A stretch of 26,434 nucleotides of DNA from an uncultured Rickettsiales bacterium (GTDB lineage Bacteria > Pseudomonadota > Alphaproteobacteria > UBA8366): positions 1 to 26,434 of the forward strand of contig CAJWTF010000041.1 in NCBI GenBank assembly GCA_913046825.1, in the 5' to 3' direction. The notes under the pieces were generated by a model that saw nothing but the letters and a program-made list of their open reading frames with translations, was not told the DNA's origin and did no database searches. Shown here one piece after another: positions 6,863-18,166 of this stretch. How positions within the stretch are numbered: position 1 is the stretch's first letter; each line of letters opens with the position of its first letter. A program made the translations under genes and the position numbers.

Positions 6863-8002
6863 ATGAGTTCGGCAAACGGCGACGCCCTGTTACTAACTCC
6901 CGGCCCGTTGACCACGTCGATGGCAACTAAAGAAGCGATGCTCCACGACTGGAGCTCCCGGGATCAAGCGTTTATCGATACGACGCAAGCGATGCGTGCT
7001 GAACTGGTTTCGATCTCGGGCGGTGGCGACGCATTCACAGCGGTCCCCTTGCAAGGCAGTGGTACGTTTGCCGTAGAAGCGATGGTCGGCACATTTCTGC
7101 CGCGCGACGGCAAACTCTTGATCGTCATCAATGGCGCTTATGGGCATCGGATCGCGAAGATTTGCGACTATATGAACCGCGCATATGTCGTCTCCGAGAC
7201 GCCGGAGGATACGCCGCCCGATGCGGCGGCTGTGGACGCTATTCTCTATAACGATCCAAATATCGGCCATGTCGTTGTCGTTCATTGCGAGACGACGTCC
7301 GGCATACTCAATCCGATTGCGGAAATCGCCGCTGTTGTCGCGGCACGGGACCGGCGGTTGCTGATCGATTCCATGAGCGCCTTCGGCGCAATTCCACTTG
7401 ACCTTTCGAAGGTTACTTGCGATGCGGTCGCAGCGTCGTCGAATAAATGCTTTGAGGGGGTGCCCGGTATGGGGTTCGTCCTCTGCCGTAAACCGGCCTT
7501 GCTTGAGAGTGAAAATAACGCCCATTCGCTTAGCCTCGATTTGTTCGACCAGTGGAAGGCGATGGAAGGCAATGGCCAGTGGCGCTTTACGCCGCCGACC
7601 CATGTCGTCTTTGCATTCAAGGCAGCGCTCGACGCTCATGCGGCGGAAGGCGGAGTCGAAGGACGTTTCGCGCGGTATAGCGAGAATTGCCAAATCTTGA
7701 CGGATGGGATGCGGGGCTATGGCTTCGAGCCGCTGCTATCGCACAATATGCAAGCGCCCATCATCGTCACGTTTCGGATGCCCGCTGATCCGCGTTTCGA
7801 CTTTCAGGACTTCTACGACCGACTGAAGGAAAAAGGCTTCGTCATATATCCGGGGAAGCTGACGGTGGCGGATAGTTTCCGCATGGGCTGTATCGGCGAT
7901 CTCAATAGCGCCGATATGCGGGCCGCACTGGCCTTTGTTGGAGAGACGCTATCGGAAATGAAAGTCCCCTCCGGCAAACCGGAGTACCACGGCCATGAAT
8001 GA
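6863..8002 (+). CDS. phnW: 2-aminoethylphosphonate:pyruvate aminotransferase
   Basis: A 379-residue PLP enzyme that transfers the amino group of 2-aminoethylphosphonate to pyruvate, giving phosphonoacetaldehyde and alanine. It matches PhnW along its length: the N-terminal LLTPGPLTTS and SSRDQAF, the substrate/phosphate loop VPLQGSGTFAVEA, HCETTSGILNPI, the PLP N1 aspartate in LLIDSMSAFG (Asp169), the Schiff-base lysine in ASSNKCFEGVPG (Lys195) and GFVIYPGK near the end. The start is supported by AGGACAT just upstream. The last codons overlap the start of the oxygenase gene by 8 nt (ATG at 7995, TGA at 8000-8002), so the two are translationally coupled. Recognition is strong. Confidence 0.95.
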   Translation: MSSANGDALLLTPGPLTTSMATKEAMLHDWSSRDQAFIDTTQAMRAELVSISGGGDAFTAVPLQGSGTFAVEAMVGTFLPRDGKLLIVINGAYGHRIAKICDYMNRAYVVSETPEDTPPDAAAVDAILYNDPNIGHVVVVHCETTSGILNPIAEIAAVVAARDRRLLIDSMSAFGAIPLDLSKVTCDAVAASSNKCFEGVPGMGFVLCRKPALLESENNAHSLSLDLFDQWKAMEGNGQWRFTPPTHVVFAFKAALDAHAAEGGVEGRFARYSENCQILTDGMRGYGFEPLLSHNMQAPIIVTFRMPADPRFDFQDFYDRLKEKGFVIYPGKLTVADSFRMGCIGDLNSADMRAALAFVGETLSEMKVPSGKPEYHGHE

Positions 8003-9068
8003 CGCGGTGGAGTCGATTGCCGCCGTGATGCCACCGGGCACCCTGGAAGGGTCTGCCGCTTGGTATGGTCGCGACTATCAGGATATCAGCGATTGGATAT
8101 ATCACCTTTCCGCCGAAGAGATCGAAGAAATCGATACTGCCGTCAGGGCTACGCAAGCCGCGGGACGGGACATCATCGGGGTAACTCGAGATAATTTCGA
8201 ATTGCCGACGCTTGGCGACAAACTCCGCGCTGTCCGGGACGAGGTGCGCGACGGCAGAGGTTTCGCGCTCATCCGAGGGCTGCCGATCGAGTGTTACACA
8301 CTAAGGGAAGCGGCGACTGCGTATTTCGGGATTGGTGCGCATATGGGCTCTGCACGTTCCCAAAACAGCGAGGGGCATGTGTTGGGGCACGTCTGCGATC
8401 TCGGTCACAAGCCGAAGGAGAACCCGCATCAGCGCGGTTATCGCTCCGGTGGCCCGCTTGATTTCCACACCGATTCCACGGATATCGCCGCTTTGCTGAC
8501 CTGGCGGAAATCAAAATCCGGCGGCGAGGGGAAAATCGCGAGTTCGGTCACCGTCTACAATGAAATGCTGCGCCGCTGCCCGGACTTACTGCGCGAGCTG
8601 TTCAAGCCGATACACCGCGACCGGCGCGGCGAAATTCCAGAAGGGATGAAACCCTGGTGGACGATGCCAGTCTATCAATGGCATGCGGGATATCTAAACA
8701 GTCATTTTAATTACAATTTCATCCTCGCGACGGATCGGTTCGAGGAACTGCCGCCGATGAGCGACGCGCTGCGGGACGCCTTTCGCACCATGATGGAGAT
8801 TTGCGAGGTAGTGCATCTGTCTATCGACTATGAGGCGGGCGATATCGGCCTGGTGAATAATCATGGAATTTTTCACGCGCGTGGCGACTACGAGGAGTGG
8901 CCGGAAGCCGACCGGCGCCGTTACTTGTTGCGCCTGTGGTTGTGTCCACCGGATGGCAGACCTCTACCTGAGAGCTACGCCCAGAGATACGGTAGTGTCA
9001 CGCCCGGCGACCGGGGTGGTATTGTCTGTCCCGCGACGGAGTTTAATGCGCCGCTGGAGCCGATCTAG
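7995..9068 (+). CDS. TauD/TfdA-family Fe(II)/2-oxoglutarate-dependent oxygenase
   Basis: A 357-residue double-stranded beta-helix oxygenase. The metal triad is visible as HTD (His158, Asp160) in LDFHTDSTDIAALL and a distal His294 in NNHGIFHARGDY; the 2OG-anchoring arginine is probably Arg313 in RRRYLLRLWL. It is longer than classic TauD (about 280) and belongs to the larger group of unknown substrate. It is not similar in pattern to PhnY*, the known AEP 2-hydroxylase, which belongs to another branch. The 8-nt overlap with phnW and the 20-nt gap to the next gene put it firmly in the phosphonate operon, so a substituted or N-alkylated aminoethylphosphonate is a reasonable substrate guess. Confidence 0.88.
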   Translation: MNDAVESIAAVMPPGTLEGSAAWYGRDYQDISDWIYHLSAEEIEEIDTAVRATQAAGRDIIGVTRDNFELPTLGDKLRAVRDEVRDGRGFALIRGLPIECYTLREAATAYFGIGAHMGSARSQNSEGHVLGHVCDLGHKPKENPHQRGYRSGGPLDFHTDSTDIAALLTWRKSKSGGEGKIASSVTVYNEMLRRCPDLLRELFKPIHRDRRGEIPEGMKPWWTMPVYQWHAGYLNSHFNYNFILATDRFEELPPMSDALRDAFRTMMEICEVVHLSIDYEAGDIGLVNNHGIFHARGDYEEWPEADRRRYLLRLWLCPPDGRPLPESYAQRYGSVTPGDRGGIVCPATEFNAPLEPI

Positions 9069-9088
9069 ATAAGACGATAGAGAGGGTG

Positions 9089-10042
9089 ATGAAATACGGA
9101 TTGCATGTTGGATTGCGCGGCGCTGCCTTGGATCCCGATGGATTGGTTGCGATTGCCCGTAAAGTCGAGGCTTTAGGGATCGAGCATTTGGGTTTCAGCG
9201 ACCACCTCGTGATCGCGGACAAAGTCGAATCGCCATATCCGTATACGAAATCGCGAGTATGGTTTGCCCAGGACAGCGGCGATTGTCTCGACCAACTAAC
9301 GGCGCTGGCTTTTGTCGCGGCGGCGACGACGAAGCTGCGGCTTTTGAGCTCTGTGATGGTGATCCCGCATCGCCCGCCGATGCTGACGGCGAAAATGTTG
9401 GCGACGGCGGATATTCTATCGAAAGGCCGCGTGACGGTCGGTGTTGGTGTTGGTTGGTCGGAGGAAGAGATTTCACTACTCGGCGCACCGACATTTAAAG
9501 GGCGCGGCAAACTAGCCGACGAGACGCTCGCGGCCATGCGTATCTTGTGGACTGAGGCATCGCCGGAATTCGACGGTGAGTACATCTCGTTCAAGGATTT
9601 AAAGTTCGAACCAAAGCCGGTGCAAAAACCGCATCCGCCGATTTGGGTCGGCGGCGAGACCAAGCCCGCGCGCCGCAGGGCCGGGCAGGTCGGCGATGGT
9701 TGGTATCCGGTCGGCAATAATCCGACATCGCCGTATGATACGGTCGCTCGCTTTTCCAAAGGTCTGGCGGATATGCGAGGATATGCGGAAACGGCGGATC
9801 GCGATCCCAGTTCGATTGAAATCGGATTGAATGTGATTTGGTTTAGAATGGATGAGATATATGAAAACGAGGACGGCAATCGGATGCCGTTCACAGGGAG
9901 CGACGCCGCGATCATTGATGATATCGGCGCTTACAAAGCGGCGGGGCTGAACCATCTGGTCATCAATTTAGAAGGTGATGACCTGCAGCTGTCCTTGGAC
10001 CGGCTCGATGCCTTTGCCGAAAGAATCATGACTAAAACCTAG
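9089..10042 (+). CDS. Luciferase-like (LLM class) flavin-dependent oxidoreductase
   Basis: A 317-residue (beta/alpha)8 protein of the bacterial-luciferase superfamily. Visible marks are the N-terminal MKYGLHVGLRG, LGFSDHLV, the barrel strands around LRLLSSVMVIPHRPP, the family-typical RVTVGVGVGWSEEE and the signature KPHPPIWVGG. Such enzymes use reduced FMN or F420; no F420 genes are present, and an FMN monooxygenase partner reductase is not seen either. I use ATG 9089, which follows AGAGAGGG; GTG 9086 directly before it would add one residue. It lies between the 2OG oxygenase and ridA in the phosphonate operon. The substrate is unknown. A role in oxidising a phosphonate intermediate is inference. 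Confidence 0.88.
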   Translation: MKYGLHVGLRGAALDPDGLVAIARKVEALGIEHLGFSDHLVIADKVESPYPYTKSRVWFAQDSGDCLDQLTALAFVAAATTKLRLLSSVMVIPHRPPMLTAKMLATADILSKGRVTVGVGVGWSEEEISLLGAPTFKGRGKLADETLAAMRILWTEASPEFDGEYISFKDLKFEPKPVQKPHPPIWVGGETKPARRRAGQVGDGWYPVGNNPTSPYDTVARFSKGLADMRGYAETADRDPSSIEIGLNVIWFRMDEIYENEDGNRMPFTGSDAAIIDDIGAYKAAGLNHLVINLEGDDLQLSLDRLDAFAERIMTKT

Positions 10043-10054
10043 GGAGAAAGCGAA

Positions 10055-10402
10055 ATGGCTGTCGAACATCTCAATTCTGGAGAAATCCTAAGCCAAGCGA
10101 CAATCTATAACGGTGTGGTAAATGTGTGTGGACTGACTGCCGATGATCGGTCGCTTGACGCCAAGGGGCAGACGGAGGAAATCCTCGCGAAGATCGATGA
10201 CCGCCTCGCCTCCTGTGGGACGGATAAGGCGAAGCTCCTGATGGCGACGATCTATCTGACCAACATGGACGACAAGTCGGGCATGAACGAGGCCTGGACC
10301 GCATGGTTGGGCGATTTGGAGCGTCCGGCGCGGGCCTGTGTTGGTACGGCACTAGGCTCTGCCGATACGTTGGTGGAGATAGTGGTCAGCGCCGCGAAAT
10401 AA
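10055..10402 (+). CDS. RidA/YjgF family enamine/imine deaminase
   Basis: A 115-residue protein of the RidA (YjgF/YER057c/UK114) family. It has the usual small size, the conserved arginine in RPARACVGTAL (Arg93, equivalent to catalytic Arg105 of RidA) and the Glu near the end (Glu108 in LVEIVV). RidA proteins hydrolyse reactive enamines and imines released by PLP or flavin amine-oxidising enzymes. A strong AGGGAGAAAG ribosome site precedes ATG, and only 12 nt separate it from the monooxygenase gene. Its place in a phnW operon suggests it clears an imine made during aminophosphonate breakdown; that role is inferred. Confidence 0.9.
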   Translation: MAVEHLNSGEILSQATIYNGVVNVCGLTADDRSLDAKGQTEEILAKIDDRLASCGTDKAKLLMATIYLTNMDDKSGMNEAWTAWLGDLERPARACVGTALGSADTLVEIVVSAAK

Positions 10403-10425
10403 CGAAGCTATTCCATATTGCCGAG

Positions 10426-10804
10426 CTAACCTGCGATTTTGCGCATGCGCTCGGCCTCGCAGCTGATTGAGCGCACACGGCCCATCATGCATTGCATCAT
10501 TGATTTGATGATTGGGTCAGTGTTGTCGAGGCGGCGGTCGAATTCCTGTTTGCTGACGGCGGGGCAAATTGACTTGGTATCCGATTTTGCCGAGGCCGCG
10601 CGAGCGCTGGCGTCGAACAACGCAATCTCTCCGAAGAGGTCACCTTTGTGGGGGACTGCGAGGCGCGACGGCGCTTCGCTGCGCAAATTCTTGTAGATGC
10701 CGATTTCCTCTTGCATCATCGTATAGGCGTAGTCGTTGGGCCACCATCTTAAAAATGACTTCGCCCTCTCTAAAGACCTGTTTCTTGATCTTGCCGCCGG
10801 GCAT
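10426..10804 (-). pseudogene. Frameshifted cyclic-nucleotide-binding (Crp-like) domain protein
   Basis: The minus strand encodes a short cNMP-binding domain protein broken by a frameshift. The first frame starts at ATG 10804 with MPGGKIKKQVFREGEVIFKM; about 10740 the match continues in another frame as PNDYAYTMMQEEIGIYK, then GDLFGEIALFD and RAASAKSDT, the phosphate-binding-cassette region, ending at TAG 10426. The helix after the cassette (NTDPIIKSMMQCMMGRVRSI) is typical of roughly 130-residue single-domain proteins without a DNA-binding part. A glycine expected between Q and E of MMQEE also seems lost. It lies antisense between ridA and phnA. A sequencing error could explain one frameshift but the extra small loss suggests real decay. 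Confidence 0.75.
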
Positions 10805-10894
10805 CGATTGTTATCCTGAATGCAGCTTGTGGACGGCGGTTTTTGCGTTATTTCAAGATCAAATCAATGCCAAGCTGAAACGCCATAGGCATAG

Positions 10895-12211
<1,317 letters not shown>

Positions 12212-15933: not shown

Positions 15934-16119
15934 ATGGCGCTGAATCGGGACGAATACGGCTTCGACGCACCGGTCGAATTGGGCCATCCCATTCGCTCAA
16001 GCCTGCCGGATGGGCATTCGATGGGGCCGGAAGTCGGGGATAGATTGCCCGATTTTAAATTGCCCGACACCACCGATCGGCAAACTTGGATGAAAGCGAG
16101 CTCCATCATAAAGTGGTGA
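15934..16119 (+). pseudogene. Truncated thioredoxin-fold peroxiredoxin-like (redoxin) gene
   Basis: A 61-codon frame with an excellent AAGGAG ribosome site starts [14 protein letters not shown] and reaches [20 protein letters not shown], the segment that opens AhpC/TSA-type redoxin domains. The sequence then departs from the family before the catalytic Cys (or Sec) strand and ends with TGA at 16117-16119. After the TGA the same frame reads [15 protein letters not shown] (to about 16168), resembling the later beta-strand of the fold, as if the region coding for the active site had been deleted. It therefore cannot be an active peroxidase. It lies directly upstream of the PrdB-like gene, and diverges from glpK. 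Confidence 0.6.
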
Positions 16120-16207
16120 GACCGCCTGCGACAATCCGGCTATGAGCTATATGTATGTTGGCATGATCGGCTATGGTTAACCGGCCAGACTAGGAGAGAC
16201 TTAGACG

Positions 16208-17089
16208 ATGACATACGTCCGTTACATCGATAAGACGCGGGAATATTACCGCAGTCAGGGCTATGATAAGCCTTATAAATGGGCACATTTCGAAGAAGCG
16301 CCATTTACCTCCGTCACAAAACCGCTCGCGAAAAGCCGAATTGCCCTGGTATCGACGGGTGAGGTAGAGGTGCGGGATATCGAGTTGTCTGAAGACGAAA
16401 ATCAAATGGGAAATGTCGGTGGGGTGTATTCCATTCCATCGAGCACCCCTGAGGATCGATTGTTCAGCGCGTCTCATAGTTACGACAAGCACGCTACGAC
16501 TCTGGAAGACATCAATGCGTTCTTTCCCGCGGCCCGTCTTCATGAAGCCGTTGAGAGTGGTCGAATTGCGGGCCTGACCGAACGATTTATCGGCGTTTAC
16601 AATGCCTATAGCCAACGCCGTACGATGGAACGTGACGCGCCCGAAGTGTTGAGGCGCTTGCGCGAAGACGGTGCTGATATCGCGGTCATGGTTCCTGTCT
16701 GACCCGTGTGCCACCAGACCGTGAGTCTGGTATCGCGCTACCTGGAAGAAAACGGCGTTCCGACCGTGGTGATGGCGGCGGCCAGAGATATCGTCGAGCA
16801 TTGCGGTGTCGCCCGCATGCTGCATGTCGATTTCCCATTGGGCAGTCCGTGCGGCGAACCATTTCGGGTGGATCAGCAGAGGGAAGCCCTAGAACTGGCA
16901 TTTCAACTGCTGGAGACGGCGGACAACCCGCGCACGACGGTGCAGGCACCTTTCAAATGGAGCGAGGGTGAGGAGTGGAAGGATCTGGTCTTTACCGAAG
17001 CACGCCCCTGGAAATCAGGCGAAGACGAACAGGATTGGTTACGCAAGAAAGAGCTGTATAAATCGCTGAAGGCCGAAGGTAAGGTCTAG
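16208..17089 (+). CDS. Candidate selenoprotein of the glycine/betaine/sarcosine/D-proline reductase B (PrdB/GrdB-like) family, in-frame UGA
   Basis: Two frames, 16208-16702 and 16706-17089, are in the same phase and are separated only by TGA 16700-16702 and one proline codon. Read through, they give one 293-residue protein matching the PrdB/GrdB-like family: N-terminal YIDKTREYYRSQGYDKPYKW, then YSQRRTMERDAPEVLRRLREDG, VPV-U-PVCHQTVSLVSRYLE, VEHCGVARMLHVDFPLGSPCG, and a charged C-terminal tail. The UGA (residue 165) sits exactly where the family has its catalytic Sec or Cys, three residues before Cys168. In clostridial reductases this Sec attacks the amine substrate. An AGGAGA ribosome site precedes ATG. 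In an oxygen-using bacterium the function is unknown. The alternative is a nonsense-mutated pseudogene, but full conservation downstream of the UGA argues against it. Confidence 0.85.
16703..16731 (+). promoter_or_regulatory. Candidate bacterial SECIS hairpin after UGA
   Basis: Immediately after the in-frame UGA, CCAGAC (16714-16719) pairs perfectly with GTCTGG (16725-16730), extended by A16713-U16731, leaving a five-base loop CGUGA. The loop begins 17 nt after the UGA and has a G in its second position followed by U. Bacterial SECIS elements sit within the coding region just 3' of the UGA, with a short apical loop containing G/GU at about this distance. SelB binding is inferred from geometry only. 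Confidence 0.6.
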
Positions 17090-17220: not shown

Positions 17221-17637
17221 TTGGTTAAGTTGATCGTGTCGGAACGCTCCTAGCTAAAAGAGCATCCGGCCTTGAGGTTGACCCTCGACCCTGACTTTCC
17301 GCCTGTCGAATTCTTCGAACAGGGAAACTTCAGCGGCATCGCTGCCGACCATGTTGAGATTTTGCAATACAAACTGGGGATAAGGTTCTATGTCCACCAG
17401 GTCGATAGCTGGTCGACATTGGTGCGGCAGACCGAGGCACGGGAGAACGATGTTTGGTCAGCAGTGGCGGAGACGACCGAACGCAAGAAATATATGCTCT
17501 TCTCGGCCCCATATATCGAATCGCAGAGAGTGATAATCGTCCGTGACGACATTAAGGACCCGTTGGATATTTCGAAGCTGAAAGGCCTGAAAGCCGCCGT
17601 GATCAAGAACTACGCGATCGGCGCGTTTTTACGGTAA
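17221..17637 (+). pseudogene. Remnant of a periplasmic sensor / SBP_bac_3 domain protein
   Basis: The frame reads SERS-stop-LKEHPALRLTLDPDFPPVEFF, then GIAADHVEILQYKLGIRFYV, SAVAETTERKKYMLFSAPY and LKGLKAAVIKNYAIGAFLR before stopping at 17637. This is the first lobe of an amino-acid-type binding domain as found in EvgS-like sensor kinases and cyclases, where the motif is usually SEREWLKEHP. The TAG at 17251-17253 stands where the tryptophan (TGG) is expected, so it looks like a nonsense mutation. The second lobe and any kinase or cyclase domain are absent. The 3' end overlaps the TauE remnant on the other strand, suggesting a deletion junction near 17630. Confidence 0.7.
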
Positions 17638-18024
17638 GCCCATCCTGGACAAACGTTCGAGGATGTACCGGATGCGATTTCGGGTTTGAAACGGGTTTCC
17701 TTTGGATCCTTCGATGCCTTGGCGTGGCAGTGGATACTCGTAGGTAGTGCCGTCCCGGTCGACAATTCGCCGCCGTTCCTTGGTTTCCACATCCATTTCG
17801 CTTGCGTCGGGTGCGATACCGCTTTGGCGTTGCAAGATGACGGCAGCCAAAATCAGAATCAAAATGCCGTATCTTGCTTTTAACAGATTGTCATCGACAG
17901 CCTGCGCGAGTAACGCTCCGATAATGCCGAAAGGAACCACGAGCGCGGCAAACGGGATCGCAGTGTTAAAATCAATTAATTGACGCCGGTAGTTGCCGAG
18001 AGAAGCAGACGTAAAGCCAAAACA
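17629..18024 (-). pseudogene. Internal fragment of a TauE/SafE-type sulfite/anion exporter
   Basis: The minus-strand frame from 18024 reads SLGNYRRQLIDFNTAIPF, VVPFGIIGALLAQAVDD and LLKARYGILILILAAVILQRQ, two membrane helices matching the end of the first half of TauE/SafE permeases, followed by the cytoplasmic linker KERRRIVDRDGTTYEYPLPRQ. After that the family match is lost and the frame ends at 17629. The N-terminal helices are missing (in-frame TAA at 18027-18025) and the whole second half is missing. It is a remnant of an inner-membrane exporter of sulfite or organosulfonates, not a functional gene. Confidence 0.7.
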
Positions 18025-18166
18025 TTACGTCAATAGAGCTGCGCCAGTCGCAAGCGGAGACATGAACCATTAAATCGTCCAGCCCATATCCTCACGCCCG
18101 GCAACGGACGTTCCTCTTTTCAGTCGAATCTAGGCCAGATATAAAAAGCTTTAACAGACCGCATGG

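What the first reader, a model, noticed from the sequence alone, without database searches (positions are those of the whole stretch)
16208..17089. In-frame UGA probably encodes selenocysteine in a PrdB/GrdB-like protein
The two half-frames are in phase around TGA 16700-16702 and together make a full-length PrdB/GrdB-like family protein, with the UGA at the family's catalytic position (VPV-U-PVCHQT). The sequence beyond the UGA (PVCHQTVSLVSRYLE, VEHCGVARML, DFPLGSPCG) is intact, which is unexpected for a dead gene. Automatic annotation would report two broken ORFs. The clostridial homologues work in strictly anaerobic Stickland reactions; relatives in oxygen-using proteobacteria have no established function.
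Basis: partly seen in the sequence, partly recalled or inferred. Interest (0 to 1): 0.88.

Follow-up and report, generated by a model that had tools for sequence, protein, structure and literature searches.

The report
Marine bacterial PrdB-like selenoprotein gene
An apparent stop codon in this bacterial gene very probably encodes the rare amino acid selenocysteine; the protein belongs to a selenoprotein family already reported from the ocean, but its chemical job in these bacteria is still unknown.

Summary
Window 16208-17089 is one 293-residue frame broken only by TGA 16700-16702. In the 80 related loci kept, that codon is TGA in 70 and Cys in 10. Right after the UGA lies a hairpin whose 7 inner pairs are complete in 65 of 71 UGA rows and 0 of 10 Cys rows, with compensating changes: a bacterial SECIS element. 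SelB is over cut-off in 37 of 40 UGA-locus genomes and 2 of 9 Cys-locus genomes. The nearest relative's genome has selA, selB, selD and tRNA-Sec; the window's own genome is not held. Both halves are under similar purifying selection. The selenocysteine reading is supported. It is not new in kind: UxxC "PrdB" selenoproteins were reported from the Sargasso Sea in 2005 and GOS in 2008. It is not D-proline reductase proper: 104 bits against a cut-off of 300 that a clostridial PrdB passes, and in 49 related genomes the PrdA model gives one weak hit. Most likely Sec-165, backed by Cys-168, is the redox nucleophile of a stand-alone enzyme. The substrate is unknown.

The parts
16208..17089 (+). PrdB-like selenoprotein gene, 293 residues with TGA read as Sec, stop TAG
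   Evidence: AlphaFold2 model mean pLDDT 90.4
16700..16702 (+). In-frame TGA = Sec-165, first residue of the U-P-V-C motif
   Evidence: TGA in 70 and Cys in 10 of 80 loci; aligns with the Sec of a clostridial PrdB
16706..16738 (+). Bacterial SECIS-like hairpin: inner stem 16713-16719/16725-16731, apical loop 16720-16724 (CGUGA), lower stem 16706-16710/16734-16738
   Evidence: -16.9 kcal/mol, z -2.39 against shuffles
16192..16196 (+). AGGAG, probable ribosome-binding site, 11 bases between it and the ATG
   Evidence: read directly from the sequence
15934..16071 (+). Context: remnant (first 46 codons) of a neighbouring redoxin-like selenoprotein gene that is 386 residues long in L001
   Evidence: tblastn 80% identity over residues 1-46 only; intact frame with AVWUPPC in L001 4518-5678
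17230..17766 (+). Context: remnant of the sensor-kinase-like gene (name recalled) that follows in L001 (residues 44-222 of 672)
17713..18087 (-). Context: remnant of a TauE/SafE-like gene (name recalled; residues 1-160 of 284 in L001)

Best explanation
This is a working selenoprotein gene. Ribosomes read UGA 16700-16702 as selenocysteine because a bacterial SECIS hairpin at 16706-16738 recruits SelB with Sec-tRNA. [Shown: hairpin, covariation, UGA/Cys exchange. Inferred: SelB binding, and the machinery in this very genome.] The product is an alpha/beta protein homologous to the Sec subunit PrdB of D-proline reductase. Sec-165 sits at the start of a helix after a strand, with Cys-168 one turn on. 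[Shown by model and alignment.] PrdB and GrdB act on substrates held as a Schiff base with the help of a pyruvoyl subunit, and that subunit was not found in nearly all related genomes searched. The protein therefore most likely works without it: the Sec selenolate attacks a polarised bond of a small molecule (C-N, C-halogen, C-O or S-S), and Cys-168 plus a cellular thiol (thioredoxin or glutathione) releases product and restores the selenol. [Inferred, by analogy with PrdB, GrdB and FarB.] I put about 0.96 on Sec insertion, about 0.9 on 'not D-proline reductase', and about 0.35 on the nucleophilic reductive-cleavage mechanism.
For: UGA/Cys exclusivity: 70/10 of 80 loci; 95 Cys, 24 ending exactly at residue 164 and 1 gap of 120 listed proteins. 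At least 8 (parsimony 13) UGA/Cys exchanges on a 175-row tree. Hairpin: all 7 inner pairs in 65 of 71 UGA rows, 0 of 10 Cys rows; covariation score 0.134 against a shuffled mean of 0.069, 0 of 500 shuffles as high. Synonymous-codon bias in the hairpin: Ser AGT in 66 of 66 Ser rows against 6% of 828 Ser codons elsewhere in these genes. Similar purifying selection up- and downstream of the UGA. SelB over cut-off in 37 of 40 UGA-locus and 2 of 9 Cys-locus genomes. tRNA-Sec of 59 bits or more in 33 of 40 and 3 of 9. selA in 16 of 16 and selD in 15 of 16 genomes given. Homology to clostridial PrdB: 35% over 222 residues, Sec aligned with Sec. That PrdB scores 310 bits on TIGR04483, the window protein 104, cut-off 300. 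PF09338 in 3 of 49 genomes and PrdA model 1 weak hit in 49; both models find the clostridial subunit.
Against: The window's own genome is not held, so its Sec machinery and any partner subunit are unseen. Two UGA-locus genomes, G004 and G040, showed neither SelB over cut-off nor a tRNA-Sec of 59 bits; incompleteness is possible but untested. The 59-bit line is mine; the family's own line of 47 bits is passed by 44 of 49 genomes and by 5 of 14 control genomes. One Cys-locus genome, G039, misses the SelB cut-off by under 1 bit and has a strong tRNA-Sec. On two of the five covariation measures the hairpin does not stand out (pairs changed on both sides: 114 of 500 shuffles as high; further pair types: 498 of 500). 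Folding energy against codon shuffles is only modest in many rows (mean z -1.06 over 71 UGA rows against -0.14 over 10 Cys rows), though that null was drawn partly from the hairpin's own codons. Neighbouring genes on both sides are remnants in the window, so a recent loss of function here cannot be excluded. Nothing identifies the substrate. Some paralogs have UxxD instead of UxxC, so the Cys is not needed family-wide.
Confidence: 0.88

Rival explanations
1. Plain UxxC thiol-disulfide or peroxide oxidoreductase: Sec-165 and Cys-168 cycle through a selenenyl-sulfide, as in thioredoxin-like proteins, serving redox homeostasis rather than catabolism.
For: Both motif residues are invariant in the 71-row alignment A1. 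A redoxin-like selenoprotein gene is the upstream neighbour in L001, and a glutathione-reductase-like gene (name recalled) lies directly upstream in L005, L007 and L008. The Sargasso paper lists PrdB among thiol-dependent UxxC redox proteins.
Against: The fold searches gave no clear thioredoxin match, which excludes little. His-169, Gln-170, Thr-171 and many other residues are invariant, which suggests a substrate pocket. The UxxD paralogs lack the second Cys. Glutathione-reductase-like genes were not enriched against other stretches of genomes in the set (1 of 42 against 1 of 38).
Confidence: 0.3
2. Genuine D-proline reductase subunit with a diverged pyruvoyl partner elsewhere in the genome.
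For: Homologous to PrdB with Sec in the same place; TIGR04483 is the best family hit.
Against: 104 bits against a cut-off of 300 that a clostridial PrdB passes with 310. 0 of 49 genomes have a PrdB over cut-off. The PrdA model gives one weak hit in 49 genomes (G005, E 7e-10), against E 1.5e-167 in the clostridial control, which itself stays under the 700-bit cut-off. The broader pyruvoyl-subunit family occurs in 3 of 49.
Confidence: 0.04
3. Pseudogene or sequencing error: the TGA is a real stop in a recently broken Cys gene (TGC or TGT to TGA).
For: Neighbouring genes are remnants in the window; the gene's 37-row group on the tree is mostly Cys (34 of 37).
Against: The same TGA is in L001 (83% identical) and in 69 further loci. 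The hairpin is complete here and in none of the 10 Cys loci. The downstream half is intact and conserved.
Confidence: 0.02
4. TGA reassigned to Trp or another residue in this genome (variant genetic code).
For: TGA is a rare terminal stop among the ORFs checked (2 of 17).
Against: No in-frame TGA in 17 other large ORFs of the window, two of which end in TGA. The relatives examined have Cys or TGA, never Trp, at the site.
Confidence: 0.01

Closest known systems
Marine 'proline reductase PrdB' UxxC selenoprotein family (Sargasso Sea 2005, PMC1088965; GOS 2008, PMC2398784; passages seen)
   Same: PrdB homolog, UxxC motif, bacterial SECIS, Cys homologs; among the commonest marine selenoproteins (42 and 235 sequences as printed)
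   Different: The 2005 paper assigns the D-proline reaction by name. Their sequences were not compared here, so identity of subfamily is likely but untested
Clostridial D-proline reductase PrdB (TIGR04483; Peptoclostridium acidaminophilum, L097)
   Same: 35% identity over 222 residues, Sec aligned with Sec, following Cys-His conserved
   Different: 104 against 310 bits on TIGR04483; PrdA lies next to the clostridial gene and is not found, one weak hit apart, in the related genomes; about 40 extra C-terminal residues
Glycine/sarcosine/betaine reductase GrdB family (PF07355, TIGR01918)
   Same: C-terminal half homologous
   Different: Lacks the N-terminal half; below the cut-offs; GrdE-type partner family in 3 of 49 related genomes
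FarB of Synergistota fluoroacetate reduction (PMC10838667, passages seen)
   Same: GrdB-like Sec protein proposed to attack a carbon-leaving-group bond, with a partner that forms no pyruvoyl group; said to lack the conserved CxxC, which recalls the UxxD paralogs
   Different: Anaerobic bacteria, works with FarE; sequence not compared here

Membership tests
Bacterial selenoproteins (UGA-encoded Sec) | In-frame UGA at a position where homologs have Cys | tested here: met
   70 TGA, 10 Cys of 80; 95 Cys, 24 truncated, 1 gap of 120
Bacterial selenoproteins (UGA-encoded Sec) | Stem-loop directly after the UGA with a small apical loop holding G (as stated in PMC1088965) | tested here: met
   Loop CGUGA, 17 nt between UGA and loop; covariation
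Bacterial selenoproteins (UGA-encoded Sec) | selA, selB, selC, selD in the same genome | tested here: inconclusive
   Own genome not held; present in the closest relative G001
Bacterial selenoproteins (UGA-encoded Sec) | Sec found in the protein | not testable with these tools
   Needs mass spectrometry or 75Se labelling
D-proline reductase PrdB (TIGR04483 equivalog) | Score over the curated cut-off of 300 bits | tested here: not met
   104.4 bits against 310.2 for a clostridial PrdB; 0 of 49 related genomes over cut-off
D-proline reductase PrdB (TIGR04483 equivalog) | Sec in UxxC aligned with the clostridial Sec | tested here: met
D-proline reductase PrdB (TIGR04483 equivalog) | Pyruvoyl partner PrdA in the genome | tested here: inconclusive
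   Own genome not held. In relatives: one weak hit in 49, wider family PF09338 in 3 of 49. Control W01: both models find the subunit beside prdB, though under the PrdA cut-off of 700, so the cut-off itself is not the test
GrdB (glycine/sarcosine/betaine reductase B) | Full-length GrdB of about 430 residues | tested here: not met
   Only profile positions 199-345 of 347 matched, 18.4 bits against 22
Marine PrdB UxxC selenoprotein family (Sargasso/GOS) | PrdB homology with UxxC and Cys homologs | tested here: met
   their own sequences were not compared
Thioredoxin fold | Thioredoxin-like structure around the UxxC | tested here: inconclusive

The most novel reading that the evidence does not exclude
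The gene belongs to a large radiation of stand-alone selenoenzymes in non-clostridial bacteria. TIGR04483 matches run to 12 in one genome, nearly all listed ones with one in-frame TGA. They have shed the pyruvoyl partner and use a lone selenocysteine (UxxC or UxxD) as nucleophile to cleave polarised bonds of small organic molecules: reductive lyases of unknown substrates outside Stickland fermentation, with Cys versions in organisms that do without selenocysteine.
Probability: 0.3. Interest if true: 0.72.

Novelty: new member of a known kind. Interest (0 to 1): 0.42.

Why it matters
Gene finding cuts these genes at the UGA: 24 of 120 listed database relatives end exactly there, one of them named as a 164-residue selenoprotein B family protein. 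The half that holds Cys-168 and many of the invariant residues is then missing. The scarcity of a PrdA-type partner suggests that 'D-proline reductase', a name some database copies carry, is wrong in these organisms. Cys orthologs in cultivable bacteria make the real reaction testable.

Tried and rejected
Pseudogene, sequencing error and variant genetic code were considered and rejected. Rfam: gathering scan of the window 0 hits, permissive scan of 16640-16800 two chance-level snoRNA hits. No relative confirmed in viral contigs. No solved structure by sequence: three rows with E 0.55-0.94. Fold searches gave no clear match, which does not show that the fold is new.

Neighbourhood lead, tested and mostly not replicated: class III CoA-transferase genes (CaiB type, name recalled) lie within 500 bp in 27 of 81 loci (80 plus window), among them L004, which shares the window gene's 37-row group. 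Any such gene occurs in 18 of 42 gene loci of 12 kb or more against 2 of 38 other stretches of genomes in the set. The query proteins were picked from the same loci and many loci are close kin (Belnapia, Rokubacteria). In 37 paralog stretches fetched afterwards (40 fetched; L173, L177 and L180 dropped as already seen) it lay within 1 kb in 2 and anywhere in 3. The window has none and L001 none in the stretch held. So I do not use it for the window gene. Of the other neighbour families tested, SDR was 9 of 42 against 2 of 38 (p 0.036, uncorrected); the rest had p above 0.05.

Searches were added as controls.

Literature: that these PrdB-like paralogs without PrdA are little described rests only on the searches in one open library and on passages, not whole papers; I do not claim it is unpublished.

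Full report
What is there. Window 16208-17089 (+) reads as one frame of 293 residues plus a TAG stop, with a single TGA at 16700-16702, residue 165, in the context VMVPV-U-PVCHQTVSLV. An AGGAG stands 11 bases before the ATG. ARAGORN finds no tRNA gene in the window and no whole genome is held for it, so everything about Sec machinery comes from relatives.

The UGA is conserved and exchanges only with Cys. A scan of genome contigs found 228 relatives; the best 80 were kept. Residue 165 is TGA in 70 and TGC or TGT in 10. The nearest, L001 (a Rhodospirillaceae MAG, 83% identical), has TGA. In the large protein database 1224 proteins matched and 120 were listed: 95 have Cys, 24 end exactly at residue 164 and 1 has a gap. 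A 175-row tree (71 Sec, 104 Cys; 294 of 361 columns kept) needs at least 13 changes of Sec/Cys state, 8 forced by well-supported branches. The window gene and L001 sit in a group of 37 rows of which 34 are Cys, including a Bordetella protein named only 'reductase'. One Cys locus, L006, carries an internal TAA.

A SECIS element follows the UGA. The 46 bases from the UGA fold at -16.9 kcal/mol against a shuffled mean of -11.06, z -2.39: a 7-bp inner stem, a five-base CGUGA loop 17 nt after the UGA, and a lower stem. All seven inner pairs form in 65 of 71 UGA rows (70 loci plus the window) and in 0 of 10 Cys rows. Gln CAG with Leu CTG changes together to CAA with TTG in 4 rows, silent on both sides. 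His CAC to CAT goes with Val to Ile (C-G to U-A) in 16 rows, 15 of them distinct. The covariation score is 0.134 against 0.069 in shuffles and no shuffle of 500 is as high; the share of paired cells and the number of cells changed on both sides also beat all shuffles, while two other measures do not stand out (114 and 498 of 500 as high). Sliding the stem drops pairing from 98.7% to at most 29.9%. Shared ancestry inflates such numbers. Codon choice is distorted where the hairpin needs it: Ser AGT 66 of 66 against 6% of 828 Ser codons elsewhere in these genes, Thr ACC 71 of 71 against 44%, Val GTG 71 of 71 against 38%. Against: a codon-shuffle test of folding energy alone was weak for many rows (mean z -1.06, Cys rows -0.14), its codon pool being drawn partly from the hairpin itself; the window row had z -2.59.

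Selection. Between the window and L001 the non-synonymous proportion is 0.115 before and 0.115 after the UGA. Synonymous proportions are 0.83 and 0.66 (0.73 without the first 14 codons after the UGA). The half after the stop is as constrained as the half before it.

Machinery in relatives. I gave 50 of the 80 loci to the genome searches; 49 genomes are held. SelB over the curated cut-off: 37 of 40 genomes reached through a UGA locus and 2 of 9 reached through a Cys locus, Fisher p 4e-5; one of the nine, G039, misses by under 1 bit. tRNA-Sec at 59 bits or more, my own line: 33 of 40 and 3 of 9; the family's own 47-bit line does not discriminate (44 of 49, and 5 of 14 control genomes). G004 and G040 have a UGA gene but neither signal. 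In a 16-genome subset SelA is over cut-off in 16 and SelD in 15. L001's genome G001 has selA and selB side by side (C27), tRNA-Sec at 78.7 bits (C23) and SelD inside a 767-residue frame (C40).

What the protein is. The best family is TIGR04483, D-proline reductase PrdB, at 104.4 bits against a cut-off of 300; GrdB models match weakly. The members of alignment A1 hit the same families. A clostridial PrdB from Peptoclostridium acidaminophilum scores 310.2 on the same model and is 35% identical to the window protein over 222 residues with the two Sec residues aligned. The pyruvoyl subunit needed by D-proline reductase is scarce in related genomes: the PrdA model gives one weak hit in 49 (G005, E 7e-10) and the wider PF09338 family occurs in 3 of 49. 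Both models find the subunit beside prdB in the clostridial record (E 1.5e-167 and 8.2e-23), although under the PrdA cut-off of 700 bits. So the protein is PrdB-like but should not be called D-proline reductase. The window's own genome could still hold a partner.

Structure and mechanism. The AlphaFold2 model (71-row alignment) has mean pLDDT 90.4. Strand 158-162 leads to residue 165 just before helix 166-181. C165 (Sec), C168, H169, Q170, T171, R177, E180, D194, E197, G200, R203 and D208 are among the invariant positions of A1. Foldseek and VIA-align gave only generic alpha/beta matches. By analogy with GrdB and with FarB, a GrdB-like Sec protein proposed to attack the C-F bond of fluoroacetate with a partner that forms no pyruvoyl group (PMC10838667, passages), I favour Sec as a nucleophile that breaks a polarised bond, with Cys-168 and a cellular thiol as recycling system. 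A general thiol-disulfide role is nearly as likely.

Surroundings. In L001 the gene follows a 386-residue redoxin-like selenoprotein gene (AVWUPPC). In the window only its first 46 codons remain, and the sensor-kinase-like and TauE-like genes downstream are also remnants. The gene stands intact between decayed neighbours. The ORF clustering showed no neighbour shared by most loci (its largest cluster is an antisense artefact of the gene itself). A CoA-transferase association in some clades did not carry over to later-fetched paralogs.

Paralogs. TIGR04483 finds up to 12 matches per genome (G005 12, G026 11). Among the rows printed, a list cut short at about E 6e-25, I saw three that carry anything but one TGA (G036 and G001:C10 none, G006 one TAA). 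Nine of the 40 paralog stretches fetched have U-P-L-D-H-Q-T, Sec without the following Cys.

Novelty. The 2005 Sargasso Sea study lists PrdB (42 sequences, UxxC) as its third commonest selenoprotein family among the known ones, and the 2008 GOS study lists 235 (passages). A 2021 study repeats it at 6.4% of marine selenoprotein genes (passage). A 2026 review describes PrdB through the clostridial reaction and says aerobic bacteria rarely retain selenoproteins (passages). The gene is thus a new member of a known kind. What I did not find described, in the searches named under Tried and rejected, is that such genes lack PrdA and have many paralogs. I have no direct evidence that the source organism is aerobic.

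Noticed in passing
genomes of L005 (G005), L035 (G026) and others: Up to 12 TIGR04483-matching paralogs per genome; nearly all printed rows carry exactly one in-frame TGA.
   Followed up: partly
L152, L153, L154, L158, L159, L161, L162, L163, L165: Paralog subfamily with U-P-L-D-H-Q-T: Sec present but the second Cys of UxxC replaced by Asp.
   Followed up: no
window 15934-16071 and 17230-18087: Remnants of a redoxin-like selenoprotein gene, a sensor-kinase-like and a TauE-like gene on both sides of the intact gene; longer in L001.
   Followed up: partly
L006 6001-6870: Cys copy with an in-frame TAA at codon 86 of the matched stretch, probably a broken gene or sequence error.
   Followed up: no
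L003, L004, L013, L031, L032, L034, L036, L039, L052, L054-L057, L059, L062 and others: A class III CoA-transferase-like gene within 500 bp of the PrdB-like gene in several clades (27 of 81); mostly not seen beside later-fetched paralogs (2 of 37).
   Followed up: partly
L027, L028, L031, L036 and L087: A methyltransferase-like gene (name recalled) of about 344-356 residues follows the PrdB-like gene, or in L087 its CoA-transferase-like neighbour, in one clade and in a Cys paralog of G001.
   Followed up: no
window 6863-12211: Genes that look like an aminoethylphosphonate transaminase, a TauD-type dioxygenase, a luciferase-like monooxygenase and a phosphonoacetate hydrolase (names recalled from the translations, no search): possible phosphonate use.
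   Followed up: no
G001:C40, G014:C34, G016:C33, G019:C97, G024:C25, G026:C18: SelD lies in frames of about 750-820 residues, which recalls the Ndh-SelD fusions described for GOS; several genomes have SelD with its own in-frame TGA.
   Followed up: no
G047:C223, G030:C100, G032:C1, G038:C17: tRNA-Sec lies beside selB, in line with the selB-selC overlap cited in PMC13188914.
   Followed up: no
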